Shown here: one piece after another, positions 19,185-42,794 of the stretch
Position numbering within the stretch: position 1 is the stretch's first letter
How the letters are laid out: every line of letters begins with the position of its first letter
Translations under genes and position numbers: made by a program
Origin: Streptosporangium sp. NBC_01755
Lineage (GTDB): Bacteria > Actinomycetota > Actinomycetes > Streptosporangiales > Streptosporangiaceae
Direction of reading: 5' to 3'
Assembly: GCF_035917995.1 (NCBI RefSeq)
Contig: NZ_CP109131.1
Coordinates: forward strand, 3,844,001-3,908,000
DNA: 64,000 nucleotides
Notes under the pieces: generated by a model
The model's database searches: none
What the model was told of the DNA's origin: nothing
What the model saw: the letters and a program-made list of their open reading frames with translations, nothing else

Positions 19185-20231
19185 GTGGACCGCCCGCTGG
19201 TCATCACCGAAGACCATGATCTGCTCGATGACCTGCTCCGTGTCGCCGCCGCGGCCGGAATCGAGCTCGACGTCGCCCACGCGCCCGCACACGCCCGGCC
19301 GCACTGGAACCGTGCTCCGCTAGTCGTCGTCGGTGATGACATGGCAGACGCCCTGGCCTCGACCGGACCGCCGCCTCGCCACCGTGTTCTCCTGGTCACC
19401 CGCACCCGCGACGACCCCGATACGTGGCGCAGGTGCGTCGCGGTCGGTGCCCAGGCCGTGCTGGAGCTGCCCTCCGCGGAGCGTCAGCTGGTCGACGAGT
19501 TCGCCGACGTCGTCGAGCCGCCCGCCAAGCCCGGATTCGTGGTGTGCGTCGCGGGCGGGCGCGGCGGAGCGGGGGCCAGCGTCCTGGCCGGTTCGCTGGC
19601 GCTGGCCGCGTCCCGTCGGCGCATCCGCACCCTCCTGGTCGACGCCGACCCACTTGGCGGAGGTCTGGATCTCCTCCTTGGCCAGGAGGAGTCCGACGGA
19701 GCGCGCTGGTCGGACCTGGTGGCCCGCGAGGGCAGGGTCAGCTGCACAGCACTCCAGGCGGCCCTGCCGACCTTCGCAGGACTGGCCCTGCTCTCCTTCA
19801 GCCGGGGCGAGATCGAGCCGATCCCGGCCGAGGCGATGCGCTCGGTCCTCGAAGCGGGGCGCAGGGGCTTCGATCTGGTGGTCGTCGACCTGCCGCGCCA
19901 GCTCGACCAGGCCGCGGTGGAGGCGCTCGGCCGGGCCACCACCACCCTCCTGGTCGTCACCGCCGACGTGCGTGGCGTGCTCGCTGCGGCACAGGTGCTC
20001 GTCTCCTTGCGCGAGCACACCGGTGAGGTGCGTGCCGTTGTGCGCAGCGGGGTCCTGACCGACGACGTGGTGACGGGCTCGCTCGGTGTCCCGCACGGCG
20101 GTAGCCTCCCCGACCAGCCTCGTCTCGCCGCCGCACTCGACCGGGGGGACGTTCCCCCGCTCGGCCGCCGCACCTCTCTTGGACGGTTCTGCGCCGCTTT
20201 CCTACACGAGCTGCTCGGGTCGGACAGGTGA
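19185..20231 (+). CDS. ssd: Septum-site-determining (Ssd/CpaE-like) MinD-family ATPase
   Basis: 348 residues. The N-terminal 120 residues resemble a degenerate receiver domain; the C-terminal part is a MinD/ParA-type fold with VAGGRGGAGASVLAGSLALAA in place of a canonical Walker A (the usual KGGxGK(T/S) lysines are replaced) and VDADPLGGGLDLLL as the switch. Such CpaE-like proteins place Tad pili and, in mycobacteria, Ssd affects septum placement. GTG at 19185 has AGGAGGT just upstream. It overlaps tadA by 4 bp and leads the operon. Confidence 0.9.
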   Translation: MDRPLVITEDHDLLDDLLRVAAAAGIELDVAHAPAHARPHWNRAPLVVVGDDMADALASTGPPPRHRVLLVTRTRDDPDTWRRCVAVGAQAVLELPSAERQLVDEFADVVEPPAKPGFVVCVAGGRGGAGASVLAGSLALAASRRRIRTLLVDADPLGGGLDLLLGQEESDGARWSDLVAREGRVSCTALQAALPTFAGLALLSFSRGEIEPIPAEAMRSVLEAGRRGFDLVVVDLPRQLDQAAVEALGRATTTLLVVTADVRGVLAAAQVLVSLREHTGEVRAVVRSGVLTDDVVTGSLGVPHGGSLPDQPRLAAALDRGDVPPLGRRTSLGRFCAAFLHELLGSDR

Positions 20232-21463: not shown

Positions 21464-22164
21464 CGGGAGCCGCCCTGGTTCTCGTCACCCTGGCGGCATG
21501 GTTGTGGACCGGTGCGGATCCCGGCACCGCCCGCCTGGGCCGCCTGCGCCGTCGAGGCCCGGTCGCCTCGCCCTCTTTGCGGGAGAGGTTCGCCGCTCAC
21601 TCGCGGCCCTCCCGGCGCGCGGCGACCTGGCGGGTCGCGTCGATCGAGCTGTGCCAGGGCCTCGCCGCCGAACTGGCGGCGGGACGGACGGCCGGTGACG
21701 CGCTGGCGCGGGCCGTGCGGGCAGCGGGGTTTCCCGATCCCGAGGCTCTGCGCCCGCTGGTCGCGGCCGCGAGGGACGGTGGTGACGTCCCCGCCGCTTT
21801 ACTGGCGGTGGCGCCGGAGCAGGGAGGCGAGGCCTTCCGGGCACTGGCCGCCTGCTGGAAGGTGAGCGTGACAGCGGGGGCGGGCCTGGCCGTCCTTGTC
21901 GATCGTGTCGCCGCCTCCCTGCGAGAGGCTCAGACCCATCGCCAGGACGTCGCCGCCCAACTCGCGGGACCCCGCGCCACGGCCCGCCTGCTGGCAGGTC
22001 TGCCCGTCCTCGGCCTGCTGATGGCGGCCGGTCTCGGCATGCGCCCGCTGCACTTCCTGTTCGGCGGTCCGGCGGGCGTCGGCTGTCTGGTCGTCGGCCT
22101 CGCACTCGACGCCTGTGGCCTGTGGTGGACCCATCGCCTGGTCACCCGGGCACAGCGGGGCTGA
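21460..22164 (+). CDS. tadB: TadB-like type II secretion F-domain membrane protein
   Basis: 234-residue polytopic platform protein of the Tad apparatus. A hydrophobic N-terminus, a cytoplasmic T2SSF domain (ELCQGLAAELAAGRTAGDALARAV, VTAGAGLAVLVDRVAASLREAQ) and two C-terminal membrane segments (LLAGLPVLGLLMAAGLGM; GVGCLVVGLALDACGLWW). ATG at 21460 overlaps the tadA stop. Confidence 0.9.
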   Translation: MTGAALVLVTLAAWLWTGADPGTARLGRLRRRGPVASPSLRERFAAHSRPSRRAATWRVASIELCQGLAAELAAGRTAGDALARAVRAAGFPDPEALRPLVAAARDGGDVPAALLAVAPEQGGEAFRALAACWKVSVTAGAGLAVLVDRVAASLREAQTHRQDVAAQLAGPRATARLLAGLPVLGLLMAAGLGMRPLHFLFGGPAGVGCLVVGLALDACGLWWTHRLVTRAQRG

Positions 22165-22199
22165 CCTCCCAGTGGTCCGGATCGCGAGAAGGAGAGAAA

Positions 22200-23177
22200 G
22201 TGATCACTCTGCTTGCCGTGCTGCTCGCCGGAATCGCCGCCCGGCTGTGGATCGCCCGGCGCGAACCCGCCGACCGGCTCCGCCGCGCACGGCGCTCAGC
22301 ACATCCGGCCGAGTTTCCGAAGGCCGAAGCACCCACGTTTTTCCCGGCTACGGGGACGGTTCGAGACTCGTTCGCGGGAACGCTTCGGGATCCGCCTGTG
22401 AGAGCGGCTCGGGATCCGTCCATGGGGATGGTTCGGAGTCTGCCTGTGCGGACGGCTCGGAACCCGGTTGCGAGGATAGGCCGGGGTCTGTCCACGGGGA
22501 CGGCTCGGGATCCGGTTGCGGGAACGGCCCGTGGCCCGTTCGCCGGGATGGCTCATGATCCGGAGGGAGGGCGGCGGCCGAGTCGGGGTGAGATCGCGGC
22601 GGCCCTCGCCGTGGGGCTGGCGGCGTTCCTGGCCGTGGGGGGTCTGCCGGGAGCGGTCACGGGGGTGACCGGTGCCGGGATCGCGCTGGCGGTGTTGCGG
22701 AGGCGAGAGTCACCCGAGCTGCGCGAGGAACGCGGACGGTTGACGGCGGATCTGCCGCTGGCGGCCGATCTCATGGTCGCCTGCCTGCGCGCGGGCCAGC
22801 CGATCACCGGAGCCGTCGAGGTCACGGCGGAGGCGATCGGCGGACCGCTGGGCGAGAGGCTGGCCTGGGTGAGCGGCCAGCTGAGACTGGGAGCCGCACC
22901 GGAGGGCGCCTGGCAGGCCCTGGCCTCCGAGCGCTCACTCGCCCCTCTGGCCCGCGCCATGGGCCGGGCCGCGTCGAGTGGTGCACCGGTGGCCGACGTC
23001 CTCACCAGGCTGTCCGACGACTCCCGCCGCGCCGCCCGCGCCGCATCGTCGGCGGCCGCCCAACGGGTCGGCGTTCAGGCCGTCGCTCCCCTGGGGCTCT
23101 GTTTCCTGCCCGCGTTCGTCTTCCTGGGCATCATCCCCGTCGTGGCCGGCCTCGCCGGCGAGGTGCTCCTTCCCTGA
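22200..23177 (+). CDS. tadC: TadC-like membrane protein with an internal repetitive insertion
   Basis: 325-residue second T2SSF-domain platform protein. Membrane segments are at the N-terminus (LLAVLLAGIAARLWI), in the middle (AAALAVGLAAFLAVGGL, AVTGVTGAGIALAVL) and at the C-terminus (LGLCFLPAFVFLGIIPVVAGLAGEVLLP). Between about residues 55 and 120 lies a low-complexity insertion of degenerate RDPxxGTAR repeats, encoded by about 30-bp DNA repeats at 22350-22560, that other TadC proteins do not normally have. GTG at 22200 follows AGAAGGAGAG. It is the last Tad gene before the accessory region. Confidence 0.87.
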   Translation: MITLLAVLLAGIAARLWIARREPADRLRRARRSAHPAEFPKAEAPTFFPATGTVRDSFAGTLRDPPVRAARDPSMGMVRSLPVRTARNPVARIGRGLSTGTARDPVAGTARGPFAGMAHDPEGGRRPSRGEIAAALAVGLAAFLAVGGLPGAVTGVTGAGIALAVLRRRESPELREERGRLTADLPLAADLMVACLRAGQPITGAVEVTAEAIGGPLGERLAWVSGQLRLGAAPEGAWQALASERSLAPLARAMGRAASSGAPVADVLTRLSDDSRRAARAASSAAAQRVGVQAVAPLGLCFLPAFVFLGIIPVVAGLAGEVLLP

Positions 23178-31326: not shown

Positions 31327-31629
31327 ATGGCTCGAACGAGCGCGATTCGTGGGCGACGTGATCGGTTGCGATGGCTGCGTGCCCGGTGGGCGCTGCTGAC
31401 CACCGGCGCGCGACGCGACCGTGGCATGTCCACCGCCGAGTACGCGGTCGGAACGATCGCCGCCTGTGCCTTCGCCGCCCTTCTCTTCAGAAACGCTTGC
31501 AAACGGTACTCAAAAAGCAATCTTGGAGGTCTCGCCCCACACGGAGTCGATCTCCACCCATGCGACCTTCGTGTCAGTGCGAAAAATCCTCACCTCGGCG
31601 ATCAGTTCCGCCGTCATCTCTCGCCGTAG
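31327..31629 (+). pseudogene. DUF4244 Flp/Tad pilin-like gene, 3' part replaced by prophage sequence
   Basis: The intact part reads RDRGMSTAEYAVGTIAACAFAALL, the hallmark DUF4244 segment (Rv3656c type): a short membrane-spanning pilin-like protein belonging after tadC. From about residue 53 (31483-31492) the sequence departs from the family: RNACKRYSKSNLGG and onward is read through the prophage end and antisense to the integrase tail, to a stop at 31629. The normal ending (a hydrophobic/amphipathic tail of about 25 residues) is missing here and should be beyond the right edge of the window, next to attR. Confidence 0.8.
31478..31512. other. Probable attL of the prophage
   Basis: Junction between the DUF4244 coding sequence and the end of the integrase gene. 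The exact crossover dinucleotide cannot be fixed without attR. Large serine integrases normally sit next to attP, as seen here. Confidence 0.7.
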
Positions 31630-33048
31630 GGCCGCCTCCAGGGTCGGCCACTCCCGGCCCAGGGCGCGCAGCATGGGTACGAACGTGCGAGGGGTCGAGG
31701 CCTGGGGCCGGGTGAGCCTCTCGCGTCGGGCTGCTGCGGTTGCTCGCTCGGCCAGGAGCTCGTCGCGGGTCCGCCCGTAGGTGTCTTCGGGGACCAGGTC
31801 CATAGCCAGCTTGCGCGTCAGACGGTCCAGGGCCGCGTCCAGGCGCTCGATCTCCGCGTCGAAGGCCTGGATGTCCCCAGGCGCCTCCGCGGGGCGTACA
31901 GGGGCCGCCTCGGGGCGCGACTCGATGTCATCAGCCCATGTCATCAGCTGGGTGAGCACGAGGGCCTCCACTCTCAGCCGAAGTACGCTGCGGGAGCGGC
32001 ATAGCTTCTTGCGCATGTACGCCCCGCAGAAGTAGCGGGCGCCCACCACGCCGCGCTGCGTTGCGATCGTCATCGTCGCCGTACAGTGGCCGCAGCGGAT
32101 CAGTCCCGAGAGCGGGTAGAGCGTGACCCGCGCCCGTGGCGCAGTGCGTTTGACGCGGCGGCGGCGGCGCCGATATGCCTGCCACTCCTCCTCTGTGATC
32201 ACGGCGGTGTGGGCTCCCGGGATGTGGATCGTGGTCGGGCAGCCTGAGGGTGTTTGGCATGTGCAGTTCGGGTCATGGGTCTGGATCAGGCCAGCGCCGA
32301 ATCCGCTGTCCAGAGTGCGCAGGAGTACGCCGCTGGACCACTGCTGGTCACGTGTGCCCCGGATGCCGAGCTCATTGAGCCAGCCGGCCAGCGCCCGGCT
32401 GCTGGCGCCGGAGATGTAGCGGCGATACGCCTCGGCCAGGATCGGTCCGACGGTGGGGTTGATCTCGTAGCGCTCGTCACCGTCATCTGGTTGTCGGATG
32501 GTCCGGTTGGGCTGCAGCGGGTCAGGGACGCGGCCGCGGAGCACGTAGCCGAATCTGGGGCGGCCGTTGGCGGGCAGGCCGCGAGCTCGTCGGTTTTCAT
32601 GCGCCTCGGCCCACTGTTCACCGGCGCGATCACTTTCGAAGGCGGCGATTTCCATGAGCATGCCGCGAGTTAATTTGCCAACGGCGGTACGGGCGTCGAC
32701 TTCCTCGGTGGCGGATTGGAGCTCGCCACCGGCGCGGTTGATGCGGCCGAGGTTGACGGCGTTGCCGGTGCGGGTGCGCCCGTAGCGGGAGTACTTCCAG
32801 ACCACGATTTCGACGGCGGCTCCGGCTTCGATGGCCTCGATGCCTTCCATGATCTTGCGGTGGAAGGTTCTTCCGGAGGCGTCGAGGTCCTCAATCCAGC
32901 GGACGATCTTCCGGTTCTGCCGGCGAGCCCAGTCGTCGATGGCGTTGCGTTGGATGTCGGGGGAGATCTGCTCCTCTTGAAGCATGGACACGCGGATGTA
33001 GCCGATCGCGGGGATGGGCTCAGCGGGGGTGGTGGTGCGCGGGGGCAT
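31510..33048 (-). CDS. Large serine recombinase (phage integrase)
   Basis: 512 residues. Resolvase domain at about 12-160: IGYIRVSMLQEEQ with the catalytic Ser, and KYSRYGRTR, ESDRAGEQWAEA. A recombinase domain follows (GRPRFGYVLRGR, AYRRYISGASSRALAGWLNELGI), then a zinc ribbon LIRCGHCTATMT...YFCGAYMRKKLC at about 320-350 and a coiled-coil IEAFDAEIERLDAALDRLTRKL. This catalyses directional attP x attB recombination. Its 3' end directly abuts attL. Confidence 0.95.
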   Translation of the reverse strand: MPPRTTTPAEPIPAIGYIRVSMLQEEQISPDIQRNAIDDWARRQNRKIVRWIEDLDASGRTFHRKIMEGIEAIEAGAAVEIVVWKYSRYGRTRTGNAVNLGRINRAGGELQSATEEVDARTAVGKLTRGMLMEIAAFESDRAGEQWAEAHENRRARGLPANGRPRFGYVLRGRVPDPLQPNRTIRQPDDGDERYEINPTVGPILAEAYRRYISGASSRALAGWLNELGIRGTRDQQWSSGVLLRTLDSGFGAGLIQTHDPNCTCQTPSGCPTTIHIPGAHTAVITEEEWQAYRRRRRRVKRTAPRARVTLYPLSGLIRCGHCTATMTIATQRGVVGARYFCGAYMRKKLCRSRSVLRLRVEALVLTQLMTWADDIESRPEAAPVRPAEAPGDIQAFDAEIERLDAALDRLTRKLAMDLVPEDTYGRTRDELLAERATAAARRERLTRPQASTPRTFVPMLRALGREWPTLEAALRREMTAELIAEVRIFRTDTKVAWVEIDSVWGETSKIAF

Positions 33049-33120
33049 GCGGGCTCCCGTGGGGTTGGGGATGGGGGTCCCGGGCGGCTCGTAGCAGGGA
33101 TACGAGCCGGCCGTCCGGGT

Positions 33121-33543
33121 CTAGGCCCAGGGGTGAGAGTTGGTGTTGTGTGGGTCGTCGCCGCCGCTCAGAGCCAGCACCATGCCGCGCAGCATGCCGG
33201 TGCGTGCGATGTGGATCTCGCGCTCGTTGGTGAGCTGGGTGCCGAGTCGGTCGGTGGCCTTGTCCACATGGGTGTTGGTTCGGTTCGCGTGTTCATCAAG
33301 ACGGGTGATGATCTTGGTGGTGTTGTTGTTGACGCTCTGGTTGAGGCGATCCAGGCGTTCGGTGATGCGCTGTAGGGCGGCGATAATTCCGATGCCTGTG
33401 GCCCCGGCTACGGTTACAACTGCGGCGCCGCAGAACGCAAGGTCAAAATTTTCAGGCGGTAGTACGTGTGGGGCGCCGACTGTATAGATACCGCCGACGA
33501 CTCCCAGTGTGATGGCGATCCGTGTGGCCCTTTTCGGAGTCAC
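33121..33543 (-). CDS. Small membrane protein with coiled coil
   Basis: 140 residues. Two transmembrane segments at about 8-24 and 38-60, then a heptad-like region (ALQRITERLDRLNQSVNNNTTKIITRLDEHANRTNTHVDKATDRL) typical of a coiled coil. Located between integrase and repressor on the same strand, so it may be expressed in the lysogen. Function unknown; superinfection exclusion or lysogenic conversion are possibilities only. Confidence 0.6.
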   Translation of the reverse strand: MTPKRATRIAITLGVVGGIYTVGAPHVLPPENFDLAFCGAAVVTVAGATGIGIIAALQRITERLDRLNQSVNNNTTKIITRLDEHANRTNTHVDKATDRLGTQLTNEREIHIARTGMLRGMVLALSGGDDPHNTNSHPWA

Positions 33544-33689
33544 GGATTCCCCTTTCGTTGCTCTTATGCTACTCCTGTGCCTTTCGGTGAGTTGTGGACG
33601 CTTCAGTGTGCTTGGTGGGTTACATGTTCCCCGTGGTTCTTTCGGGGCTTCACGCAGGGAACGCTACCCACAGTGGGGCACGGGTTACA

Positions 33690-34247
33690 TTAAGAGCTCA
33701 TGTCTGATTGATCCGTCAAGGATTTCGGATCCGCCAAATCCCCTCTCATCAGCTTGCCCCAAATCAGGCGTCGCCGAATTTGGGCGCGACGCCATTCCTC
33801 CATTTCCTGCTCTGTCACCCGATCCAGTTTTGCCCGCTCTTCCTGCGTCATCCCCGCCTCACTCTCGGCGAGCAGCGCCAAGAGCTGCGCGGTGCTGAGC
33901 GTGCGATACGCCTCCTCGAGCTCCCCCAGGGAGTAGTCCTGCACGCTGGGAAGCCCGGCCGCCCTCGCCGCGGCCGCTTCCATCAGGGATCCGCCCTCGC
34001 CGGGCAACGGGGTGGGGTTCCCGCCGGCGAGGGTGCGTTGGATGGACCCGGGCGCCCACTGGAGGGCCTCTTCGAGGCGTGCCTCGACGATGTCACTGAT
34101 GCCGGCCCCGCCGTTCCGGAAGCGCCGCAGGTGTGTCGTGCTGATCTGCGCCCGAGCGGCGATCTCCTCCCACTGCAGGCGCAGGGTTTTACGTCGCTGC
34201 TCCATCAGGGCGGCGAGGGCTTGGACGGCCTCGCTGGTGCTGTTCAT
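33690..34247 (-). CDS. Phage repressor (XRE-type HTH)
   Basis: 185 residues. HTH at about 20-55 (LRLQWEEIAARAQISTTHLRRFRNGGAGISDIVEARLEEALQW), then a helical C-terminal part (ELEEAYRTLSTAQLLALLAESEAGMTQEERAKLDRV). No LexA-like autocleavage motif. Divergent from the Cro-like gene across a palindrome-rich gap, the standard layout of an immunity region. Confidence 0.8.
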   Translation of the reverse strand: MNSTSEAVQALAALMEQRRKTLRLQWEEIAARAQISTTHLRRFRNGGAGISDIVEARLEEALQWAPGSIQRTLAGGNPTPLPGEGGSLMEAAAARAAGLPSVQDYSLGELEEAYRTLSTAQLLALLAESEAGMTQEERAKLDRVTEQEMEEWRRAQIRRRLIWGKLMRGDLADPKSLTDQSDMSS

Positions 34248-34411
34248 CGGCGGCCCTCCGCGGGGCGTCTAGTGCGGCACTGTGCGCACTGTACCGCACA
34301 TTCCCAGATCAGAAGGGGTTTCTGACAGGACTTAGTCGCGTCCAGTTACGGACATGTGCGGAGATGTGCGGTTTGTTGCGGTGCACCGCACATGTGCGGT
34401 ACGTTTCGGAC
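34248..34411. promoter_or_regulatory. Immunity operator region
   Basis: Contains repeated half-sites TGTGCGGT/ACCGCACA: ACCGCACA 34293-34300, TGTGCGGA 34355-34362, TGTGCGGT 34365-34372, a 14-bp palindrome TGCGGTGCACCGCA at 34377-34390 overlapping a 16-bp palindrome ACCGCACATGTGCGGT at 34385-34400. Both divergent promoters must lie here. The array is the likely shared operator of the repressor and the Cro-like protein. Confidence 0.8.
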
Positions 34412-34699
34412 ATGGCAACCGCAACACGCAGTTTGAGCCTCCCCTTCAACGGGCTCCGCGCCAGACACTTCCGGGAAAGGCAGGGCCTCACGCTGACCCA
34501 GCTGGCCAAGCGCTGCGAGGAGGCGGGTCTGCGCATCAACCACAGCACCCTGTCCCGCTACGAGGCCGACCATTTCGGTCCCACCGTGACCCGATTCCGG
34601 GTGCTGGCCACGGCGCTCGGAGTCGAGCCTGAGGACCTGTGCGGCCCGCTTCCGGACGTGCCGGACGACCAGGACGCCGCTCCCTCAGGGACACGCTGA
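34412..34699 (+). CDS. Cro-like XRE regulator
   Basis: 95 residues. HTH: LRARHFRERQGLTLTQLAKRCEEAGLRINHSTLSRYEADHFGPTVTRFRVLATALGV. Compact, no effector domain. First rightward gene after the operator; its stop overlaps the next start (ATG at 34699). Likely the lytic-side regulator. Confidence 0.82.
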   Translation: MATATRSLSLPFNGLRARHFRERQGLTLTQLAKRCEEAGLRINHSTLSRYEADHFGPTVTRFRVLATALGVEPEDLCGPLPDVPDDQDAAPSGTR

Positions 34700-34932
34700 T
34701 GTCGGCCTACCGCGACATCCTCCGCCCCGAACAGCGCCCGCTCTACGACCAGGCCATCGGCGGCGCCGCAAGCATCCTCGGCCGGGCCCGAGGAGTTCGA
34801 GACTCCCTCACCCCCGAGGAAGCCGCTGAGCGCGCCTACGTCCCTGGCGGACCCTCCCGCGAGGAGATCGCCGCGCTCATCCGCCAGCTCCGCGCCGAAA
34901 CCCACACACAGCCTCTCCAGGGCGCTGCATAA
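34699..34932 (+). CDS. Hypothetical phage protein, 77 residues
   Basis: Helical (YDQAIGGAASILGRARGVRDSL, PSREEIAALIRQLRAE). Overlaps the Cro-like gene by one base. No family recognised. Confidence 0.62.
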   Translation: MSAYRDILRPEQRPLYDQAIGGAASILGRARGVRDSLTPEEAAERAYVPGGPSREEIAALIRQLRAETHTQPLQGAA

Positions 34933-34969
34933 CCCCCGAACCGCTGAAGGAGCACCCCGAGGAGACCCC

Positions 34970-35089
34970 GTGAGCTCGTTCTTCCGCCCTGCGCCGCCTG
35001 GCTACGCGGACGTGTGGATTACGGCGTTGGCTGCCCGGTTCCAGGAGGACCGCGACGACGAGCTCGTGGAGTACGTCCTCGTCGCCTGA
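34970..35089 (+). CDS. Hypothetical phage microprotein, 39 residues
   Basis: GTG at 34970 after GAGGAG; reads VSSFFRPAPPGYADVWITAL then AARFQEDRDDELVEYVLVA. Good ribosome site is the main support. Confidence 0.45.
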   Translation: MSSFFRPAPPGYADVWITALAARFQEDRDDELVEYVLVA

Positions 35090-35172
35090 CCTTGTGCGGG
35101 CCTGGCCGATGGCACGACCAGGACCCGCCGACCCACCCGCTCATGAGACGTGAAAGAGAGAGCAGGCAAGTC

Positions 35173-35562
35173 ATGACCAGTATCACCCACGCGTCGGCGG
35201 TTGCCCCGTCGGTCGCCGTGATGACCGCCGAGGAGTTGGCCGCGTTCGCGAAGCGGCTCACGACGCTGACGATCGAGCCCGCTGAGCGGCGCCTCGTGTT
35301 CAGCCTCTTCGCGGAGGCGGTCGAGGCGATCGCCTCCACGGCCAACACAATCACCTACGGCATCACCGAAGAGACACCGGTCTGCGGTCTGCTGGCCTCC
35401 CCGGACGGGGTGTTGCCGCTGGAGGGGCAGGCGGTGTTCGAGGCGTCGGACGCGGCGGGGCTGCTGGCGCAGGCTCGGGACGGGTTCCGAGAGGCGGCGC
35501 AGGCCGTCGAGGAGCTCGACCGTCTCGCGTCGCTCGCCGCCCAGGGCGGAGGCCGGGCATGA
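35173..35562 (+). CDS. Hypothetical phage protein, 129 residues
   Basis: Helical protein with an AELAAFAKRLTTLTIEPAERR segment and a central GLLASPDGVLPLEG strand. GAAAGAGAGAGC precedes the ATG. Overlaps the next gene by 4 bp; start of a run of about 14 tightly overlapping genes. No family recognised. Confidence 0.65.
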   Translation: MTSITHASAVAPSVAVMTAEELAAFAKRLTTLTIEPAERRLVFSLFAEAVEAIASTANTITYGITEETPVCGLLASPDGVLPLEGQAVFEASDAAGLLAQARDGFREAAQAVEELDRLASLAAQGGGRA

Positions 35563-35960
35563 GCGACTCCCCGATCACCGTGCGCCTGCCGCTTTGCATG
35601 CTGGACCTGCTCGTGCCGACCGGCGCGACCCTGCCTCTGGCCTGGGTCGTGCTGCTGGGCCACCGCGAGCAGCTCACCACCGCCCCGGACGGGCGCCCGG
35701 TGTACGGCGACGTCACCAGCTGGCAGCCGATCCTGCCGGTGTCCTACGAGGGCCGCGCGGTCGCGGTCGCCGAGCGCCTGGGAGCGGCGTCGCTCGGCAG
35801 CGAGCCGGACCAGTGGCTCTGGTACCCGGCGACCGACGACGGCGACCTGCCCATCACGGAGCTGTGGGGCGTGGTCGACGGCAACGATGTGCGGCCCGAG
35901 GTGGCCATCGCCCCGCTGACGGCGCTGCTGGCCGAGTCCCAGGACGGGGGCCAGTCGTGA
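35559..35960 (+). CDS. Hypothetical phage protein, 133 residues
   Basis: Mixed alpha/beta; PLAWVVLLGHREQLTTAPDGRPVYGDV and DQWLWYPATDDGDLPITELWG are its most distinctive parts. ATG overlaps the upstream stop. No function assigned. Confidence 0.62.
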   Translation: MSDSPITVRLPLCMLDLLVPTGATLPLAWVVLLGHREQLTTAPDGRPVYGDVTSWQPILPVSYEGRAVAVAERLGAASLGSEPDQWLWYPATDDGDLPITELWGVVDGNDVRPEVAIAPLTALLAESQDGGQS

Positions 35961-36298
35961 GCGCTCCCGCCCTGGAGGCCGTCACGATGCTGGCCGCCCG
36001 CCAGGTCCTGGCCGCTGCCGCCATCCGGCTGGAGGAGTACCCGGCCGCCCGGGTGACATCGGTGGACGTCACCCACACGGTCCTCGCTGCCGCCGACCAG
36101 CTGCTGCCCCGCGACCGGTCTGCCGCTTACCACCTGGCCGTCGACGCTCTGGACGTGCTGGGCGAGTACCGGCGGGAGCTGGGTGAGGACCCCAAGGCGC
36201 TGGACCGGTGGACCACCGTCTACAGCCGCGTCGAGATGGTCGCGCAGATGCGCGCCGCCGCCAACACCACCACCACCGAGAGCGGAGACCAGGCATGA
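35957..36298 (+). CDS. Hypothetical phage protein, 113 residues
   Basis: All-helical: ALEAVTMLAARQVLAAAAIRLEEY, VLAAADQLLPRDRSAAYHLAVDALDVLGEYRREL. GTG start inside the upstream stop. No function assigned. Confidence 0.62.
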   Translation: MSAPALEAVTMLAARQVLAAAAIRLEEYPAARVTSVDVTHTVLAAADQLLPRDRSAAYHLAVDALDVLGEYRRELGEDPKALDRWTTVYSRVEMVAQMRAAANTTTTESGDQA

Positions 36299-36660
36299 CC
36301 CCCACCGCCACCCTCACCGTGACCGCCCAGCAAGTCGCGGCCCGCGCGCTCCTTGACCTGCTGGGCCAGGACCTGCCGGGCGCGACCTGGACCCTCTGCC
36401 TCTACACGGGCTTGCTCAGCGGGCAGCCCGACCACCAGCCGCCGCTCAGCGAGCGGCGGGCCGCCATCACCCGCTACGCGGAGGTCCTCGACGCCACCCC
36501 CGAGGTGCACCGCTACTGCAACCCGACCCCTGACCACGCCGGGCGCCTTGGCGTGGACGCCGAGTACCTCGGCGCGCGGATCCGGGTGTGGGTCGGGCTC
36601 ACGGAGGCGGACGGCGCCGAGCTCGACGCCGAGCAGGCCCTGGCGGTGGCTGATGCCTGA
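36295..36660 (+). CDS. Hypothetical phage protein, 121 residues
   Basis: Mixed alpha/beta; TVTAQQVAARALLDLLGQDL helix and a TWTLCLYTGLLSGQ strand. Overlaps both neighbours. No family recognised. Confidence 0.62.
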   Translation: MTPTATLTVTAQQVAARALLDLLGQDLPGATWTLCLYTGLLSGQPDHQPPLSERRAAITRYAEVLDATPEVHRYCNPTPDHAGRLGVDAEYLGARIRVWVGLTEADGAELDAEQALAVADA

Positions 36661-36961
36661 GATCCGCATCCCCGAGGGGCCGATCGAGACCGAGCCGTGG
36701 GACGCGATCCGCACCGCCCCCGGCGAGTCCCTGACCGCCGCGTGCCGCACCGCCCTGCTGCGCGAGATGGGCGGCATGGAGGTCGGTGACTGGGATGACG
36801 AGCTCCTGGGCTGGCTCGCCAACCAGGACCCGTCCGTCGTCGCCACGATCTGCTCCTGGCTGCGGCGGGTCCGCACCCTCCCGCTACCGGCCATCCCGAC
36901 CGTGCGCGACGCCACCGAGGCCGAATACCGCGCCGAGCAGACCAACGAGGAGCAGGCATGA
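36653..36961 (+). CDS. Hypothetical phage protein, 102 residues
   Basis: Helical acidic protein (LTAACRTALLREMGGMEVGDWDDELLGWLANQD, VVATICSWLRRVRTL). The repeated LANQDPSVV pattern is seen in other actinophage early proteins, but no role is known to me. Confidence 0.62.
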   Translation: MPEIRIPEGPIETEPWDAIRTAPGESLTAACRTALLREMGGMEVGDWDDELLGWLANQDPSVVATICSWLRRVRTLPLPAIPTVRDATEAEYRAEQTNEEQA

Positions 36962-37212
36962 GGACCGAAGCCGCCCCGCAACCCGCTGACCGTGTCTTGG
37001 CTGCGGTCGCTCAGGTGCTCGTCTACCTAGGTGACGTGCCGCATGACCGCGTCATCATGGCCGCCGCTGTGCTCGCTCGCCGGCAGCCTGAGCTGACCTC
37101 GGAGCAGGCGGTGATCACCGCCGCCAACGGGATGTGGGACGCCGATGCCCGCGCCGCGTGGAACGAGGGGCGCAAGCTGCTCGATGAGGCTGAGGCGCGG
37201 GTGGTCGCGTGA
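36958..37212 (+). CDS. Hypothetical phage protein, 84 residues
   Basis: Helical: DRVLAAVAQVLVYLGD and EQAVITAANGMWDADARAAWNEGRKLLDEA. ATG overlaps upstream stop. No function assigned. Confidence 0.6.
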   Translation: MRTEAAPQPADRVLAAVAQVLVYLGDVPHDRVIMAAAVLARRQPELTSEQAVITAANGMWDADARAAWNEGRKLLDEAEARVVA

Positions 37213-37631
37213 GCGCCCTGACCGTGTCCAGCCTCGTCGTGGAGGCCCGCCCGTCGGCGGTTGAGGTGGCTGTGCTCCATCTGCCGCCGGGGTCGCTGGC
37301 CCGCGTGCACCACCCGGACAGGACCCGCGAGTACACGCCCGGCTTTCCCGACATCCCGTACTACGTGGTGGTTCCCGGCGACAACTCCGCGATCGGGTGG
37401 GGGTGGAACGTCGGCTGGTACGGGTCCCTCACCGGGGTCCGGAACGGGCGTCACCGCCTGGACCGGGACGCCTGGCACGCGGCGGCGAAGGCCCTGCGTT
37501 CCGCGTCCGTCGTCTACGTGCGCTACGAGGCACTCACCTACTACAGCGCCACCAGGTGGACCGCCGTCGGTGTCCGCGTCGAGGGCACCCTCTCCCTTCC
37601 TGAGCAGACCGAGGAGCCCGCGCATGTCTGA
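37209..37631 (+). CDS. Hypothetical phage protein, 140 residues
   Basis: Strand-rich with many aromatics (YYVVVPGDNSAIGWGWNVGWYGSLTG). No motif recognised. GTG start overlaps upstream stop. Confidence 0.62.
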   Translation: MSALTVSSLVVEARPSAVEVAVLHLPPGSLARVHHPDRTREYTPGFPDIPYYVVVPGDNSAIGWGWNVGWYGSLTGVRNGRHRLDRDAWHAAAKALRSASVVYVRYEALTYYSATRWTAVGVRVEGTLSLPEQTEEPAHV

Positions 37632-38265
37632 GACGGAGATCGCGGAGCGTTTCAAGCGCGAGACCGCCACCCACGTCATGGAGATCAAGCACGACGACGG
37701 CCTGTACCGGCACCTGCGGTTCAAGAGCCCGAAGCATGGTCGTTACTGGTTCGACTTGATCACCGTTCCGCACGCCCTGATCTTCCGGGGTGACGGCGAA
37801 AGCTTCGTGTTCAGCCGTACCGACGACATGTTCGAGTTCTTCCGCTCCGGCCTCTGGTCGGACGGGTCGCTCCACATCGACGCGGTCTACTGGGCTGGGA
37901 AGCTCACCAGCGACCGCGACAGCGTCATGAAGTACTCGAAGGAGCTGTTCGACCAGCAGGTCGCCGAGGAGCTCAAGGAGGCTGAGGCCGACTGGCCTGG
38001 GGTCACCAAGGCGTGGGACGAGACGGTCAACGACTTCTTCGCCAGTTACAACACCGAGTACGAGCACGACGCGCGCGCCGCTGTGGACGCCTTCGAGTTC
38101 TGGCTTGGCGACGATACCGAGGAGCCTTTCCGCTTCCAGGACACCGGGGAGTGGGAGTTCAAGGACTACCACTGGTGGTTCTTGTGGGCTCTCCACGGGA
38201 TCGTGTGGGGCATCTCCCAGTACGACCAGGCGAGGGCCGCCGCTGTGCAGGGCGGTGAGCAGTAG
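37624..38265 (+). CDS. Hypothetical phage protein, 213 residues
   Basis: Largest of the early run. N-terminal beta-rich half (YRHLRFKSPKHGRYWFDLITVPHALIFRGDGESFVFSR) then a helical, acidic C-terminal half ending in Trp-rich DYHWWFLWALHGIVWGISQYDQARA. Resembles widespread phage early proteins, whose function is not known to me. Confidence 0.68.
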   Translation: MSETEIAERFKRETATHVMEIKHDDGLYRHLRFKSPKHGRYWFDLITVPHALIFRGDGESFVFSRTDDMFEFFRSGLWSDGSLHIDAVYWAGKLTSDRDSVMKYSKELFDQQVAEELKEAEADWPGVTKAWDETVNDFFASYNTEYEHDARAAVDAFEFWLGDDTEEPFRFQDTGEWEFKDYHWWFLWALHGIVWGISQYDQARAAAVQGGEQ

Positions 38266-38681
38266 TGGGCGCCCCCGCTGTCCTTCCCGCCACGGTCTCC
38301 TGGCCGCAGGGTGTGACGCATCTGCGCTCCGGCGGGGTTGCCGCCCTGCTGGAGGTCACTCCGCGCCGGGTGGCGCGCTGGCAGACCCTCGGACTGATCA
38401 CCGCGTCAGCACTGACCGAGGGCGGGCATCGCCGGTTCACCCGCGCCGACGTCGAGGCATTCCTGCGGGAAGCGTGCTTTGCCTGCCGTCTCGGCTCGGG
38501 GGACATCGTGTCCTGCCCCGGCTGGAACGACGGCCGCCCCGTCCGGGTGCTGCGCGTCACCCCGACCTTGCGGGACGGCCTGTACATCCGCTGGCAAGAC
38601 GTCGCCGTCCGAGCCCACGCCATGGACGTACCGGTCGGCCGTACCCGGCTCGTGCGCCGCCTCCACCAGGGGGCGGCATGA
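38265..38681 (+). CDS. MerR-type HTH protein (excisionase-like)
   Basis: 138 residues. Winged-helix: THLRSGGVAALLEVTPRRVARWQTLGLITASALTEGGHRRFTRADVEAFLREA, the BldC/MerR/Xis pattern. A CxxC-like pair (ACFACRLGSGDIVSC) follows. In serine-integrase phages a small extra protein (RDF) drives excision; this is a candidate but only by fold and position. GTG start shares a base with the upstream TAG. Confidence 0.72.
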   Translation: MGAPAVLPATVSWPQGVTHLRSGGVAALLEVTPRRVARWQTLGLITASALTEGGHRRFTRADVEAFLREACFACRLGSGDIVSCPGWNDGRPVRVLRVTPTLRDGLYIRWQDVAVRAHAMDVPVGRTRLVRRLHQGAA

Positions 38682-38830
38682 ACCACGACGAGGACGAGGA
38701 CGCCATGAGCGCCTACCTCGCCCAAGGCGAGCCGCACCCCATCCCGGTCGCTCGTGACCCGCGGAACCCCGCCGAGGACGAGATGACTCCGCAAGACGAA
38801 GAGACCTACGAGCAGGAGAAAAACACCTGA
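38678..38830 (+). CDS. Acidic phage protein, 50 residues
   Basis: Very acidic (MNHDEDEDAM..., EDEMTPQDEETYEQEKNT), like DNA-mimic proteins in charge only. Overlaps both neighbours. Function unknown. Confidence 0.55.
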   Translation: MNHDEDEDAMSAYLAQGEPHPIPVARDPRNPAEDEMTPQDEETYEQEKNT

Positions 38831-39516
38831 TGGCGATCAACTCCGACTACAACGAGGTCGCGGCGCGGATCGTTGAGGCCCGTAAGAAGCACCCTGAGGG
38901 CATCCTCCAGCCGCTCGACCCCGCCACCCCCTACAAGATCGAGACGATCGGCGACAAGACGTTCATCGTCTACGTCGCCGCGTTCTACCGCACCCCGGAG
39001 GACACGAAGCCGGGCATTGGGACCGCATGGGAGCCGTTCCCGGGCCTCACGAACTTCACTCGCAACTCGGAGTTGATGAACGCCGAGACGTCAGCGTGGG
39101 GGCGCGCCCTGGTCGCGGCGTTCGCCGCCGACGCCAAGAAGGGCATCGCCACCTCGCTGGAGGTTCGCAACCGGGAAGCCGAGCGGCAGGCGCAGTACGG
39201 GCCGCCCGACCAGCAGGGCTGGCCTGAGGTGAAGGACCCGGGTGAGCAGCTCGTCACGAAGGCGCTGCTGTCCCGTCTCGCCGCCCAGTTCGCGACGCTC
39301 GGCGTCGCTGGGCGCGATGAGGGGTTGATGACGATTGGTGCACTGATCGGCGTACAGGTCACCAGTACCAAGGCGCTGACGAACGCCCAGGCATCGCAGC
39401 TCATCGGGGCACTGGACCCGCTGACGAAGGCCGAGGACCCGCCCGCCGCTCTGGCTGCCGCGCTGCGTGAGGCGATGGCGGAGAAGCCGGAGGAGTCGCA
39501 TGACGACGCCGCGTGA
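38830..39516 (+). CDS. ERF-like single-strand annealing protein
   Basis: 228 residues. The N-terminal domain reads GILQPLDPATPYKIETIGDKTFIVYVAAFYRTPEDTKPGIGTAWEPFPGLTNFTRNSELMNAETSAWGRALVAAFAADAK. The TNFTRNSELMNAETSAWGRA segment resembles the conserved core of Erf-type recombinases. Such proteins promote phage recombination and replication. Next gene overlaps. Family assignment is from motif likeness; RecT-like is an alternative. Confidence 0.6.
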   Translation: MAINSDYNEVAARIVEARKKHPEGILQPLDPATPYKIETIGDKTFIVYVAAFYRTPEDTKPGIGTAWEPFPGLTNFTRNSELMNAETSAWGRALVAAFAADAKKGIATSLEVRNREAERQAQYGPPDQQGWPEVKDPGEQLVTKALLSRLAAQFATLGVAGRDEGLMTIGALIGVQVTSTKALTNAQASQLIGALDPLTKAEDPPAALAAALREAMAEKPEESHDDAA

Positions 39517-40114
39517 GGCCGCGCTCCGAGTCGCGGTCCTGGACGCGCTGGCGAAGCGGGTGAACAAGTCGCTGGCCGACGCCCGCGGTGAGGCTGAGCA
39601 GCTGTTCGCTGTGGCCCGTGCGGGCGGCGCGACACAGATTGAGGTGGCTCTCCCCTCGGGCGCCGCGGTGGGGAAGGTCTCCATCAAGGCCGGTCAGGAG
39701 AGCATTCGGGTTGACGAGGCGGCACTGCTGAAGTGGGTGCTCGCCAACCAGCCGGAGGAGATCGAAGCCGAGGTTTCGCCGTCGGCCCTGTCGCGCCCGG
39801 ACGTGATCGCCTACGTCCGTAAGCTCCACCCGGACCTGATGCGGCAGAAGGTCCGCCCCGCCTACCGGGCGAAGCTGCTGGCCGAAGTCAACGAGTCAGG
39901 GGAGCTGGCATCGGAGACGACCGGCGAGGTCGTGAAGGTCTCCGAAACCGTGAAGTCCGACCCGACCGGCGCGTTCGCCCTGACGTTCGAGACGGCAAAG
40001 AAGGGCAAGCCGAACGGCCGCGACCAGATCGCCGCCGCCTGGCAGTCCGGAGAGCTGTCCATCACAGAGCTGATCCGGCCGGCGATCGAGGGCGCCCCGG
40101 GCGGTGAGTCATGA
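39500..40114 (+). CDS. Phage recombination-associated protein, 204 residues
   Basis: Helical N-terminus (VAVLDALAKRVNKSLADARGEAEQLF) and a mixed C-terminal half with PDVIAYVRKLHPDLMRQKVRPAYRAKLLAEVNESGEL. Follows the ERF-like gene with overlap, a place where phages often encode a nuclease or annealing partner; no nuclease motif is visible. Confidence 0.58.
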   Translation: MTTPREAALRVAVLDALAKRVNKSLADARGEAEQLFAVARAGGATQIEVALPSGAAVGKVSIKAGQESIRVDEAALLKWVLANQPEEIEAEVSPSALSRPDVIAYVRKLHPDLMRQKVRPAYRAKLLAEVNESGELASETTGEVVKVSETVKSDPTGAFALTFETAKKGKPNGRDQIAAAWQSGELSITELIRPAIEGAPGGES

Positions 40115-40548
40115 CCGATGTCTTCCAGCGCGCCGAGTCAGGCAGCTTCGAGTTCCTTTCCGAGGACGTGGTCCTCACCCCGGCCGACACCGATGTGTTC
40201 CTGAGGCGACTGAACAACGAGTTGGGCCGCTCCCAGCTTGCGGTGAAGCGGGCCCGCGAAGCCGAACTGGGCGCTGAGCGGCGCTACCTGGAGGCTCGCA
40301 CGATCCTGCTGATGCAGGAGCAAGCCCCTGAGGTGGGGCGCCGTACCGGCCAGGTGAGCCAAAAGCAGTTGGACGACTGGTTCGCGGTCCGTATCTCCGA
40401 GGAGTACTGGGAGTTGCGTGAGGCGAAGGTTCTGCGGGCCAACGCCGTGGACTACGCCTGGCAGGTCAAAGCCCAGGTGGAGTTGATGCGGTCCCTCAAC
40501 GTCAACGCCAAGGCCATGTACGACACCTACCGCGGCGGCGGCCGATGA
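40111..40548 (+). CDS. Coiled-coil phage protein, 145 residues
   Basis: Largely helical with a heptad pattern (RLNNELGRSQLAVKRAREAELGAERRYLEARTILLM). No enzymatic motif. Overlaps both neighbours. Confidence 0.6.
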   Translation: MTDVFQRAESGSFEFLSEDVVLTPADTDVFLRRLNNELGRSQLAVKRAREAELGAERRYLEARTILLMQEQAPEVGRRTGQVSQKQLDDWFAVRISEEYWELREAKVLRANAVDYAWQVKAQVELMRSLNVNAKAMYDTYRGGGR

Positions 40549-41084
40549 AGACCCGCGTGCAGGCCTGCTGCAGCAGGGAGACGTTCGCGAACGAGGCTGA
40601 GGCCCGCCGGCGTCTGGATCGGATCGTGTCGCTCGGGGTGTCTCGTGTCCTGCCGATGGGGGTGGAGCGGTGCCGCAACGGGTGGCACCTGAAGTTCCCG
40701 ACCACGGACACGGGGCCGTCGACGAAGCTCCGCACCCTGGTGGAGGCCAGGGATGGGAACCGGTGTGTGAAGTGCGGGAAGCCCACCCCGCGGGATGAGG
40801 ACTCGCTTCACCATCGGCTTCCTCGGGGGCGTGGTGGAGGCAACACCGCAGAGAATTTGATCTTGCTTTGTGGTACCGGAGTGACCGGCGATCACGGTTG
40901 GGTCGAGCAGCATCGGGCCGCCTCCTACCGACTCGGCTACCTCGTCGAGTCCGGCCTCGACCCCGCGGACAAGCCAGTCGCGGTCGCCGGCGTGGGCTGG
41001 ATGTACCCCACCGAAGACGGCAGATGGATAACCCCGCAGGAGTACGGGGCCAATCCGGCGGAGCTGGGCGAGGTGACGTCATGA
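40545..41084 (+). CDS. HNH endonuclease
   Basis: 179 residues. The HNH core: LVEARDGNRCVKCGKPTPRDEDSLHHRLPRGRGGGNTAENLILLCGTG with a CxxC zinc pair and HHR...N...H-like residues, GDHGWVEQH giving the last His. The N-terminal part has a further CxxxC. HNH proteins of this position are homing-type or packaging nucleases; here it sits before DNA methyltransferases. Confidence 0.83.
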   Translation: MKTRVQACCSRETFANEAEARRRLDRIVSLGVSRVLPMGVERCRNGWHLKFPTTDTGPSTKLRTLVEARDGNRCVKCGKPTPRDEDSLHHRLPRGRGGGNTAENLILLCGTGVTGDHGWVEQHRAASYRLGYLVESGLDPADKPVAVAGVGWMYPTEDGRWITPQEYGANPAELGEVTS

Positions 41085-41203
41085 CGGAGTGCCTCGCCCC
41101 GCCGGCTGATGGGGAGCGGTGCGGTATCTGCGACGTGGACCTCGCCTTGCAGGTCGCGGACCCGAGGTATGGGTCTCCGCCGGACATGGACGTGCCCGTA
41201 TGA
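41081..41203 (+). CDS. Hypothetical phage microprotein, 40 residues
   Basis: MTECLAPPADGERCGICDVDLA then LQVADPRYGSPPDMDVPV; contains CGxC, a possible half zinc knuckle. Overlaps the next gene by 4 bp. Confidence 0.5.
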   Translation: MTECLAPPADGERCGICDVDLALQVADPRYGSPPDMDVPV

Positions 41204-42726
41204 AGCCCTACTACGAGGACGCTGCGGTGACCCTGTACCACGGCAAGAGCGAGAAGATCCTCCCGCTGCTGGCCGACGCGTCGGTCGACGCCATGGTGAC
41301 CGACCCGCCCGCCGGAATCGCGTTCATGGGTCGCACCTGGGATGGAGACAAGGGCGGGCGGCGTCAGTGGATCGCCTGGCTCACTGAGGTCATGGAGCAA
41401 GCCCGCCGGGTCCTCAAGCCCGGCGGCCACGCCCTCGTATGGGCATTGCCCCGCACCTCCCACTGGACCGCCACCGCGTTGGAAGACGCCGGATTCGAGA
41501 TCCGCGACTGCATCGTCCACATCTACGGGTCGGGGTTTCCCAAGTCTCTGGACGTGGGCAAGGCGATCGATCGGCAGCGCAACGATCGCGACGCCATCGT
41601 CGCTGTGACCGCGTTCGTCCGTCAGGCCCGCCTCTCCTCTGGTGCGACCATCGCCGAGATCGACGCCGCGTTTGGCACCAACGGCATGGCGTGGCGCTGG
41701 TCCACCGTCAAAGAGAGCCCGGCCGTACCGAACTGGGAGCAGTGGCTCAAGCTGAAGGGGCTGCTCGGGTTCGGCGATGACATGGACGCTGAGGTGTGGC
41801 GTCTCAACGGGCGCAAAGGGCAGCCGGGCGAAGCATGGGATGACCGTGAGGTCGTGGCTCAGGGGTATCGCATCCGCCGTGAGTCTGCTGTGCAGATAAC
41901 AGGGCTTAGTAACGGCACCTACGACATCACTGCCCCAGCGACGGACGAAGCACGCCAATGGTCAGGATGGGGGACGGCGCTCAAGCCGGGCTCAGAGCAT
42001 TGGTGGCTGGTCCGAAAGCCGCTCGCGGGGACGGTCGCCGCCACGGTGGTGGCGTACAGCACGGGCGCCCTCAACATCGCGGCGTGCCGGGTCGAGCCGA
42101 CCGGGGAGTCTCGGCCGCGCGTGGGCGAGAAGTCACAGGAACGCCGGTACACCGATCAGGGCGGCACGAACTTCGCCCCGCTGCCCGGCGTGCGCGGCGG
42201 GGACCCGGCCGGGCGGTGGCCGACGAACGTGGTCTTTTCCCATTCGGCGGGTTGTGTCGAGGGGCAGGGGTGTGAGGCGGACTGCCCGGTCGGTGAGCTC
42301 GACCGGCAGAGCGGGGTCCTGAAGTCCGGCGCCAACCCCACCCGCCGCAACTCCGATAAGTTCCGCGACGCTTACGGCACTTTCACCGGCCAGCAGGAAT
42401 GTGTACCAGCCCGAGGCGCTGATGCAGGTGGCGCGTCCCGCTTCTACCCGACGTTCCGCTACCAGGCCAAAGCCCCCGCCAGCGAACGGCCGAAGGTTGG
42501 CAGCATCGCACATCCCACCGCGAAGCCCCTCAACCTCATGCGATGGATGTGTCGCCTCATCACCCCGCCTGGCGGGGTGGTTCTCGATCCGTTCGTTGGA
42601 TCTGGCACCACGTTGGAGTCTGCTCTCGCCGAGGGCTTCCAGGCGATCGGCATCGAGCAGGAGGCCGACTACCTGCCGCTGATCATGCATCGGCTGTCCA
42701 AAGATCTACAACTCCCCATCCTCTGA
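41200..42726 (+). CDS. DNA methyltransferase (N4/N6-type, beta class)
   Basis: 508 residues. Motif IV is TDPPAGIAFMGRTWD near residue 31, where the usual DPPY has Ala at position 4. Motif I is VVLDPFVGSGTTLESALAEGFQAIGIEQ near the C-terminus (about 470), and LYHGKSEKILPLLADASVDAMVT begins the domain; PTAKPLNLMRWMCRLITPPGG precedes motif I. The order IV...I is that of beta-class amino-methyltransferases. No restriction gene is adjacent, so it probably protects phage DNA or marks the genome. ATG at 41200 overlaps the upstream stop. Confidence 0.87.
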   Translation: MKPYYEDAAVTLYHGKSEKILPLLADASVDAMVTDPPAGIAFMGRTWDGDKGGRRQWIAWLTEVMEQARRVLKPGGHALVWALPRTSHWTATALEDAGFEIRDCIVHIYGSGFPKSLDVGKAIDRQRNDRDAIVAVTAFVRQARLSSGATIAEIDAAFGTNGMAWRWSTVKESPAVPNWEQWLKLKGLLGFGDDMDAEVWRLNGRKGQPGEAWDDREVVAQGYRIRRESAVQITGLSNGTYDITAPATDEARQWSGWGTALKPGSEHWWLVRKPLAGTVAATVVAYSTGALNIAACRVEPTGESRPRVGEKSQERRYTDQGGTNFAPLPGVRGGDPAGRWPTNVVFSHSAGCVEGQGCEADCPVGELDRQSGVLKSGANPTRRNSDKFRDAYGTFTGQQECVPARGADAGGASRFYPTFRYQAKAPASERPKVGSIAHPTAKPLNLMRWMCRLITPPGGVVLDPFVGSGTTLESALAEGFQAIGIEQEADYLPLIMHRLSKDLQLPIL

Positions 42727-42794
42727 CCTTGTGTCGGCCCTGCGCTCTCGGGGGTGCAGGGCCGACACCCCACCTACCCCGAAGGGAAACCCCA

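What the first reader, a model, noticed from the sequence alone, without database searches (positions are those of the whole stretch)
31327..31629. Tad pilin-like DUF4244 gene is the integration site of a serine-integrase prophage
The DUF4244 protein is intact up to AFAALL and then leaves the family pattern exactly where the large serine recombinase begins, so insertion is inside the coding sequence. The Tad locus loses this pilin-like subunit in the lysogen. If excision restores the gene, the prophage may act as a developmental switch for Tad pili, as phage-regulated genes do in other bacteria.
Basis: partly seen in the sequence, partly recalled or inferred. Interest (0 to 1): 0.75.

Follow-up and report, generated by a model that had tools for sequence, protein, structure and literature searches.

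The report
Prophage splits an actinomycete pilin gene
A 98,000-base virus genome sits inside the main pilus-protein gene of this actinomycete, and the same tiny gene turns out to be cut by unrelated mobile elements in several other actinomycetes, which hints that such elements may gain from switching the pilus off.

Summary
The DUF4244 gene (PF14029) is cut after its hydrophobic helix; its other half lies 98 kb away on the same strand. The attL and attR junctions share TTCA, and the outer arms form an inverted repeat (17 of 20), as expected for attP of a serine integrase; the element is 97,970 bp. It carries terminase, portal, capsid, tail and lysis genes. The flanks joined give an intact 78-aa pilin precursor; the 15 other genomes of the genus have one unbroken match each. 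By processing site, size and position the gene is flp, the major Tad pilin.

Elsewhere, DUF4244 is interrupted by mobile elements in 7 of 605 genomes with a match, this one included: two serine-integrase clades and tyrosine-recombinase elements, at four positions, in both orientations. One control gene showed 0 of 333; the difference is only borderline (two-sided p 0.055).

The switch idea is untested. I favour simple loss of the Tad pilus in the lysogen; whether elements choose flp to block pilus-dependent DNA uptake, as prophages in comYC do, is the bold open reading.

The parts
18804..20231 (+). tadZ-like ParA/BcsQ-type ATPase (start uncertain)
   Evidence: PF06564 E 2.1e-7; named tadZ by position
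20228..21463 (+). tadA, pilus ATPase
   Evidence: PF00437 E 1.1e-56; the stronger of two T2SSE matches over the cut-off in the genome
21106..22164 (+). tadB (ORF; true start uncertain)
   Evidence: PF00482 E 2.5e-9; named by position
22122..23177 (+). tadC
   Evidence: PF00482 E 1.1e-16; named by position
31327..31489 (+). 5' half of flp (DUF4244): leader, processing site G/MSTAEY and hydrophobic helix; the frame then runs on to 31629 in phage DNA
   Evidence: PF14029 positions 6-33; G/XXXXEY rule from PMC4322843, passages
31486..31489 (+). attL common core TTCA (the same four bases at genome 3973456-3973459 are in attR)
31490..31509 (+). phage arm of attL, inverted copy (17/20) of the arm at attR
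31510..33048 (-). large serine integrase, 512 aa
   Evidence: PF00239, PF07508, PF13408; best isolated-phage relatives are Streptomyces phages of the SV1 kind, about 41-43%
31490..64000 (.). part of the prophage inside the window; it continues to genome 3973455 (97,970 bp core to core)
33690..34247 (-). candidate phage regulator (HTH)
   Evidence: PHROG transcription regulation E 2.4e-6; HTH_3 below its cut-off
34433..34699 (+). phage regulator
   Evidence: PHROG transcriptional repressor E 2e-10
43004..43792 (+). anti-repressor
   Evidence: phrog_130 E 3.1e-54
56253..57632 (+). DnaB-like replicative helicase of the phage
   Evidence: phrog_19 E 1.8e-85

Best explanation
A temperate tailed phage of about 98 kb integrated by its large serine integrase into an attB site inside flp (DUF4244), the major pilin gene of the chromosomal Tad locus. 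Shown: the gene is cut in the codon after the hydrophobic helix; both halves and an inverted-repeat attP split over attL and attR are present; the phage brings no replacement end, so the lysogen encodes a pilin stump with 46 foreign residues, and tadE/tadF-like genes are separated from tadZABC by the element. Inferred: the lysogen makes no normal Tad pilus. Inferred: excision by the integrase plus an unidentified excision factor would restore the reading frame exactly. Shown by comparison: flp is also cut by unrelated recombinases in other actinomycetes, so it is a recurrent integration target.
For: Split PF14029 matches 98 kb apart on one strand; junctions, TTCA core, 17/20 dyad, and an intact 78-aa joined frame with 39-43 of its last 47 residues identical to eight congeners; 15 of 15 other genomes of the genus have one unbroken match; terminase, portal, capsid, tape measure, tail, endolysin, DnaB; order tadZ-A-B-C-flp-tadE-tadF by domains, the order reported with Rv3656c as flp in PMC9531140 (passages); in the stretches searched only flp and TadE carry a prepilin-like site in a fitting place.
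Against: No expression, excision or pilus data. About 8 kb of other genes (23178-31280) lie between tadC and flp here but not in relatives, so the locus may have been impaired before the phage came. The stump keeps the processing site and helix, so some altered pilin could still be made.
Confidence: 0.9

Rival explanations
1. Neutral targeting: flp is hit because its DNA is very conserved, mostly single-copy and dispensable, a good landing site for many recombinases. Pilus loss is a side effect with no benefit to the element.
For: 14 consecutive invariant residues GMSTAEYAVGTIAA in the eight aligned relatives, and the cuts lie in this stretch or within about 12 residues after it; the nearest integrase relative (58%, G229) sits beside a transporter-like ORF instead (read by eye). 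The excess over the control gene is only borderline.
Against: A similarly short, widespread control gene (DUF3046) had 0 of 333 insertions found. A survey of serine integrases found targets enriched in DNA-competence genes (PMC10083194, passages).
Confidence: 0.45
2. Anti-transformation: elements insert in flp because the Tad pilus takes up DNA, and uptake plus recombination would remove the element. Inactivating the major pilin makes the element safe, as prophages in comYC do in streptococci.
For: In the actinobacterium M. luteus the Flp pilin and tad genes are needed for transformation (PMC4322843, passages). Prophages recur in comYC, the major competence pilin, and divergent integrases hit two sites of comFA, which that paper takes as evidence of selection (PMC4774983, passages). 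Here unrelated recombinases hit flp at four positions. ComEC (PF03772) is present in 6 of 7 genomes checked, G000 included.
Against: I know of no transformation in these hosts; G018 showed no ComEC match, and G483 and G034 were not checked; ComEC also rings in 10 of the 14 control genomes, so its presence is weak evidence; kinship of the M. luteus Flp with DUF4244 was not tested.
Confidence: 0.3
3. Receptor loss: phages that use the Tad pilus are excluded once the pilin gene is broken.
For: Caulobacter Tad pili take part in phage adsorption (PMC11067988, abstract).
Against: No actinophage using a Tad pilus showed in the 8 of 24 papers listed; the element in G018 showed no phage gene in the proteins tested (six by Pfam, one by PHROGs), so exclusion would explain it less well.
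Confidence: 0.12
4. Developmental switch: regulated excision restores flp at a certain stage, as with skin-like elements or the Listeria comK prophage (both recalled).
For: Excision would restore the frame exactly; the virion and lysis genes tested look whole.
Against: No excision factor identified; of 48 SV1 proteins compared only five matched the element, none a known factor. flp is unbroken in all 15 congeners, so the insertion is not a fixed part of the genus.
Confidence: 0.07

Closest known systems
Prophages in comYC of streptococci and Lactococcus (PMC4774983, passages)
   Same: Prophage in the coding sequence of the major pilin of a pilus; recurs across species; gene lost in the lysogen
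   Different: There similar integrases at one orthologous site of the competence pilin, a gene needed for transformation; here the Tad/Flp pilin of actinomycetes, several unrelated recombinases, four positions, no phenotype
SV1-like Streptomyces phage integrases
   Same: Same integrase kind (about 41-43%); integrase, small ORF, regulator on one strand and a regulator on the other in both
   Different: Element about 98 kb rather than 38 kb and otherwise nearly unrelated; SV1's attB was not looked up
phiRv1/phiRv2-type small prophage-like elements (recalled) and PICIs of mycobacteria (PMC10654092, passages)
   Same: 10-11-kb elements in G492 and G663 with a Bxb1-like (recalled) serine integrase and a capsid gene
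   Different: Inserted in flp; the two mycobacterial prophage papers I searched hold no 'pilus'
Tn554-type TnpA/TnpB/TnpC elements (recalled)
   Same: Two tandem tyrosine recombinases plus a third small protein in G018 and, by ORFs, G171
   Different: Target is flp, not radC (recalled); the third protein is DUF6262, its kinship with TnpC not tested

Membership tests
Flp/Tad major pilin | Processing site G/XXXXEY followed by about 20 hydrophobic residues, 50-80 aa | tested here: met
   RG/MSTAEY then AVGTIAACAFAALLFKVV; 78 aa with the flanks joined; rule from PMC4322843, passages
Flp/Tad major pilin | Lies between tadC and tadE in a tad locus | tested here: met
   Domains; tadC ends 0.2-1.3 kb upstream in 7 of 8 congener loci fetched
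Flp/Tad major pilin | Forms the pilus filament | not testable with these tools
   No solved structure matched by sequence
Large serine integrase prophage | Resolvase, Recombinase and zinc-ribbon domains, gene at one end of the element | tested here: met
Large serine integrase prophage | Short common core with inverted-repeat attP arms split over attL/attR | tested here: met
   TTCA; 17/20, reached by 1 of 100,000 shuffles
Large serine integrase prophage | Virion, packaging and lysis genes | tested here: met
Competence-gene-targeting element (comYC type) | Target gene required for DNA uptake in this host | not testable with these tools
   Reported only for M. luteus flp (PMC4322843, passages)
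Competence-gene-targeting element (comYC type) | Recurrent disruption of the gene by divergent recombinases | tested here: met
   7 of 605 genomes; excess over one control gene borderline
Active-lysogeny switch | Regulated precise excision restores the gene | not tested
   Only the sequence possibility is shown

The most novel reading that the evidence does not exclude
In actinomycetes the Tad (Flp) pilus is a DNA-uptake machine, and prophages, phage satellites and Tn554-like elements have independently evolved integration into its major pilin gene to shut uptake off and avoid being removed by transformation: an actinobacterial counterpart of the comYC/comK conflict, with several unrelated recombinase lineages converging on one gene of about 240 bp.
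Probability: 0.28. Interest if true: 0.85.

Novelty: new variant of a known kind. Interest (0 to 1): 0.6.

Why it matters
Most actinomycetes sampled have this pilin gene (340 of 394 in the class sample), yet what the Tad pilus does in most of them is, to my knowledge, open. A gene that unrelated mobile elements repeatedly break points to a pilus function that may matter to the elements, most plausibly DNA uptake. That gives a direct test in culturable hosts: compare DNA uptake with and without the element. It also points to new attB sites in a gene found across the class, which could serve integration vectors.

Tried and rejected
Related integrases as a guide to the target: 31 of 345 genomes of the order, G000 included, have a match at E <= 1e-40; I scanned the 29 other loci fetched and found no DUF4244 piece (one chance-level match, E 0.71). 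The IMG/VR relative L009 (62%) ends three bases after the integrase match, so it says nothing about that side. A genome-contig scan with the integrase found nothing.

DUF4244 in viral contigs: no confirmed match. Four viral contigs with relatives of the G492/G663 integrases were found; I looked only at the first 60 bases of one of them, L176. No near match of the first 24.5 kb of the prophage to any phage record.

Excision factor: 48 of SV1's 55 annotated proteins were compared, five matched, none a known factor; the phiC31 stretch I fetched (1-6000) lists no gp3. Not resolved.

Solved structures: no match for the pilin profile. No fold prediction was run.

Odd DUF4244 rows: eleven genomes were looked at again; G018, G171 and G293 were cut by elements; G021, G029, G034, G112 and G260 have a full-length copy; G025, G077 and G209 only weak matches. 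G021 and G077 also hold short N-terminal pieces that I did not resolve. In one search nine were looked at again; G492, G663 and G483 were cut; G473 shows only a C-half near a contig end; G350, G387 and G418 are divergent single copies; G401 and G481 weak. Genomes with several matches but a strong best match were mostly not looked at again, in either search. G034's truncated second copy beside another serine recombinase is mentioned, not counted.

Control: one odd genome, G040, has its two pieces adjacent in different frames, a frameshift. Three others (G051, G060, G139) had two matches with a strong best one and were not looked at again. One control gene is thin evidence. p values: 0.052 for 4/306; 0.095 for 6/605 before G483 was recognised; 0.055 two-sided and 0.046 one-sided for 7/605. 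The 605 pools two searches with different E cut-offs (0.01 and 0.001), while the control covers only the order sample.

Full report
WHAT WAS CLAIMED.

THE BREAK IS REAL. The ORF matches PF14029 over positions 6-33 of 54. A search of the whole 8.15-Mb chromosome (window = G000:C1:3844001-3908000) finds the rest, positions 30-53, at 3973447-3973518 on the same strand; the only other hit at E <= 10 is chance-level (E 1.6). At the left junction the gene reads CTTCTCTTCA and then GAAACGCTTGCAAACGGTAC; at the right junction GTACTGTTTGCGGGCGTTTCTG precedes TTCAAGGTGGTG. The uninterrupted common bases at the crossover are TTCA, and the two phage arms are inverted copies (17 of 20; 1 of 100,000 shuffles does as well). 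This is the layout expected of a serine-integrase attP. Core to core the element is 97,970 bp. Joining the flanks gives a 78-aa frame ending RGMSTAEYAVGTIAACAFAALLFKVVTSPDVQQMITTLINRALTVAG, without stop or frameshift; over these last 47 residues 39-43 are identical to eight congeners.

THE ELEMENT. The integrase (512 aa) has Resolvase, Recombinase and zinc-ribbon domains and resembles those of SV1-like Streptomyces phages at about 41-43%. Other genes tested: anti-repressor, two DNA methyltransferases, DnaB helicase, terminase, portal, head, major tail, tape measure, distal tail and endolysin proteins. The last 10 kb before attR hold an HU protein, a protein with a weak FtsK match, one with a weak DUF2637 match and a GntR regulator, with a second GntR-like ORF by eye; this is less usual for a phage. 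No phage record matches the first 24.5 kb at DNA level. Of 48 SV1 proteins compared, five matched: the integrase, two minor tail proteins, an HNH endonuclease and one hypothetical protein.

THE TARGET IS FLP. Upstream lie genes with BcsQ/ParA, T2SSE, T2SSF and T2SSF domains (tadZ, A, B, C by position); downstream of attR lie TadE and TadE/G-like genes. The joined protein has the Flp processing site G/XXXXEY and Flp size, as described in PMC4322843 (passages). PMC9531140 (passages) gives the same order for M. tuberculosis with Rv3656c as flp. In the stretches searched only flp and TadE carry such a site in a fitting place; the other pattern hits lie in the start of tadC or in non-coding or antisense frames by my reading. 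In the lysogen the frame runs from the helix into 46 phage codons, most of them antisense to the integrase. The second half lacks leader and processing site; the only possible start I see just upstream of it is a TTG codon. So the gene is broken, not rebuilt.

EMPTY SITES. All 15 other genomes of the genus have a single, unbroken DUF4244 match. Of the eight congener loci fetched, seven contain the end of tadC, 0.2-1.3 kb upstream of flp; in the eighth (L019) no tadC end was seen in the 1.5 kb fetched. In this genome about 8 kb of other genes lie between (NUDIX, B12-binding/thymidylate kinase and others).

THE SAME GENE IS CUT ELSEWHERE. Order sample: 345 genomes, 306 with a DUF4244 match; of eleven odd ones re-examined three are cut by elements: G018, G171, G293. 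From equal contig lengths these are Acrocarpospora macrocephala NBRC 16266, Nonomuraea guangzhouensis CGMCC 4.7101 and Actinomadura sp. K4S16. In G018 and G171 a 7.4-kb and a 9-kb element carry two tandem tyrosine recombinases and a third small protein (DUF6262 in G018), in opposite orientations relative to flp, at the codons VGT|IA. G293 has the same kind of ends and a 74% relative of the larger recombinase 24 kb inside the element, but its halves are on two contigs. Class sample: 394 genomes, 340 with a match, of which 41 were in the first sample by my count of the rows, so 605 in all. Of nine odd ones re-examined, G492 and G663 carry elements of 9.8 and 11.1 kb with Bxb1-like (recalled) serine integrases (61% to one another; G492's is 25% to the window's) and a capsid gene, at the EYA codons, again in opposite orientations. 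G483 is cut after YTVV beside a tyrosine recombinase; its second half is on another contig and its match there is weak (E 0.012), but the sequence reads on as a DUF4244 end. Together 7 of 605, G000 included, five with both halves on one contig, at four positions: EYA, GT|IA, LF|K and VV|T. G034 has a further truncated copy next to a third serine-recombinase clade at a contig edge, besides an intact copy, and G473 only a C-half; neither is counted.

CONTROL. DUF3046, another short gene, in the same 345 genomes: 333 with a match, one with a weak split match, which is a frameshift: 0 of 333. Fisher: 4/306 versus 0/333 p 0.052; 7/605 versus 0/333 one-sided 0.046, two-sided 0.055; with 6/605, before G483 was recognised, 0.095. 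This is suggestive, not proof. The stronger point is that recombinases without close kinship (24-26% between serine clades; tyrosine versus serine) converge on one short gene, at different bases and in both directions.

WHAT IT MEANS. Well supported: a phage inside flp. Likely: no normal Tad pilus in the lysogen. Open: why flp. Streptococcal prophages in comYC, the major competence pilin, and other competence-gene insertions were read as selection against transformation (PMC4774983, passages); serine-integrase targets are enriched in competence genes (PMC10083194, passages); M. luteus needs its Flp pilus for transformation (PMC4322843, passages); ComEC is present here and in 5 of the 6 other genomes tested, not in G018. 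Against: neutral choice of a conserved, dispensable gene explains the same facts with less. The switch idea remains possible but has no support beyond frame restoration.

IN PRINT? Full-text search for DUF4244 gave three papers, seen as a listing only; each holds the term once. Of 44 papers found, 15 were listed and none of these holds 'tad pil'; one search gave one paper, on another subject by its title. Two mycobacterial prophage papers hold no 'pilus' (passages). Supplementary tables could not be read, so lists of attB sites there could still contain this gene; most subscription papers are not in the library.

Noticed in passing
window 23178-31280: About 8 kb of extra genes between tadC and flp that seven congener loci lack: NUDIX, an ORF with B12-binding and thymidylate-kinase matches, a DUF4352 protein, and by eye an XRE-like and a GntR-like ORF. 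A separate intrusion in the same Tad locus; no mobility gene was identified.
   Followed up: partly
L007 1645-11099 (genome 3963645-3973099): The right 10 kb of the prophage carries HU, weak FtsK-like and DUF2637-like proteins and GntR regulators (one by Pfam, one by eye), more like actinomycete plasmid or conjugative-element genes (recalled) than phage genes.
   Followed up: partly
L109 and L110 (G018, G171): Element with tandem tyrosine recombinases in flp. Of the four near-full-length relatives of the larger recombinase at 74% or more, three are in genomes with a cut flp; G197's copy has a stop codon and its flp match is unbroken.
   Followed up: partly
L163 and L164 (G492, G663): Small elements of 9.8 and 11.1 kb with a serine integrase and a capsid gene (a scaffold match in G663 only), inserted in flp in opposite orientations.
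   Followed up: partly
L005:8037-9872 (prophage): A 611-aa prophage protein with ADP-ribosyltransferase-like PHROG matches (E 1.6e-39), between the minor head protein gene and the protease-like gene.
   Followed up: no
L090 (G034, contig C92): Truncated DUF4244 next to a third clade of serine recombinase at a contig edge, a possible fifth insertion position.
   Followed up: partly
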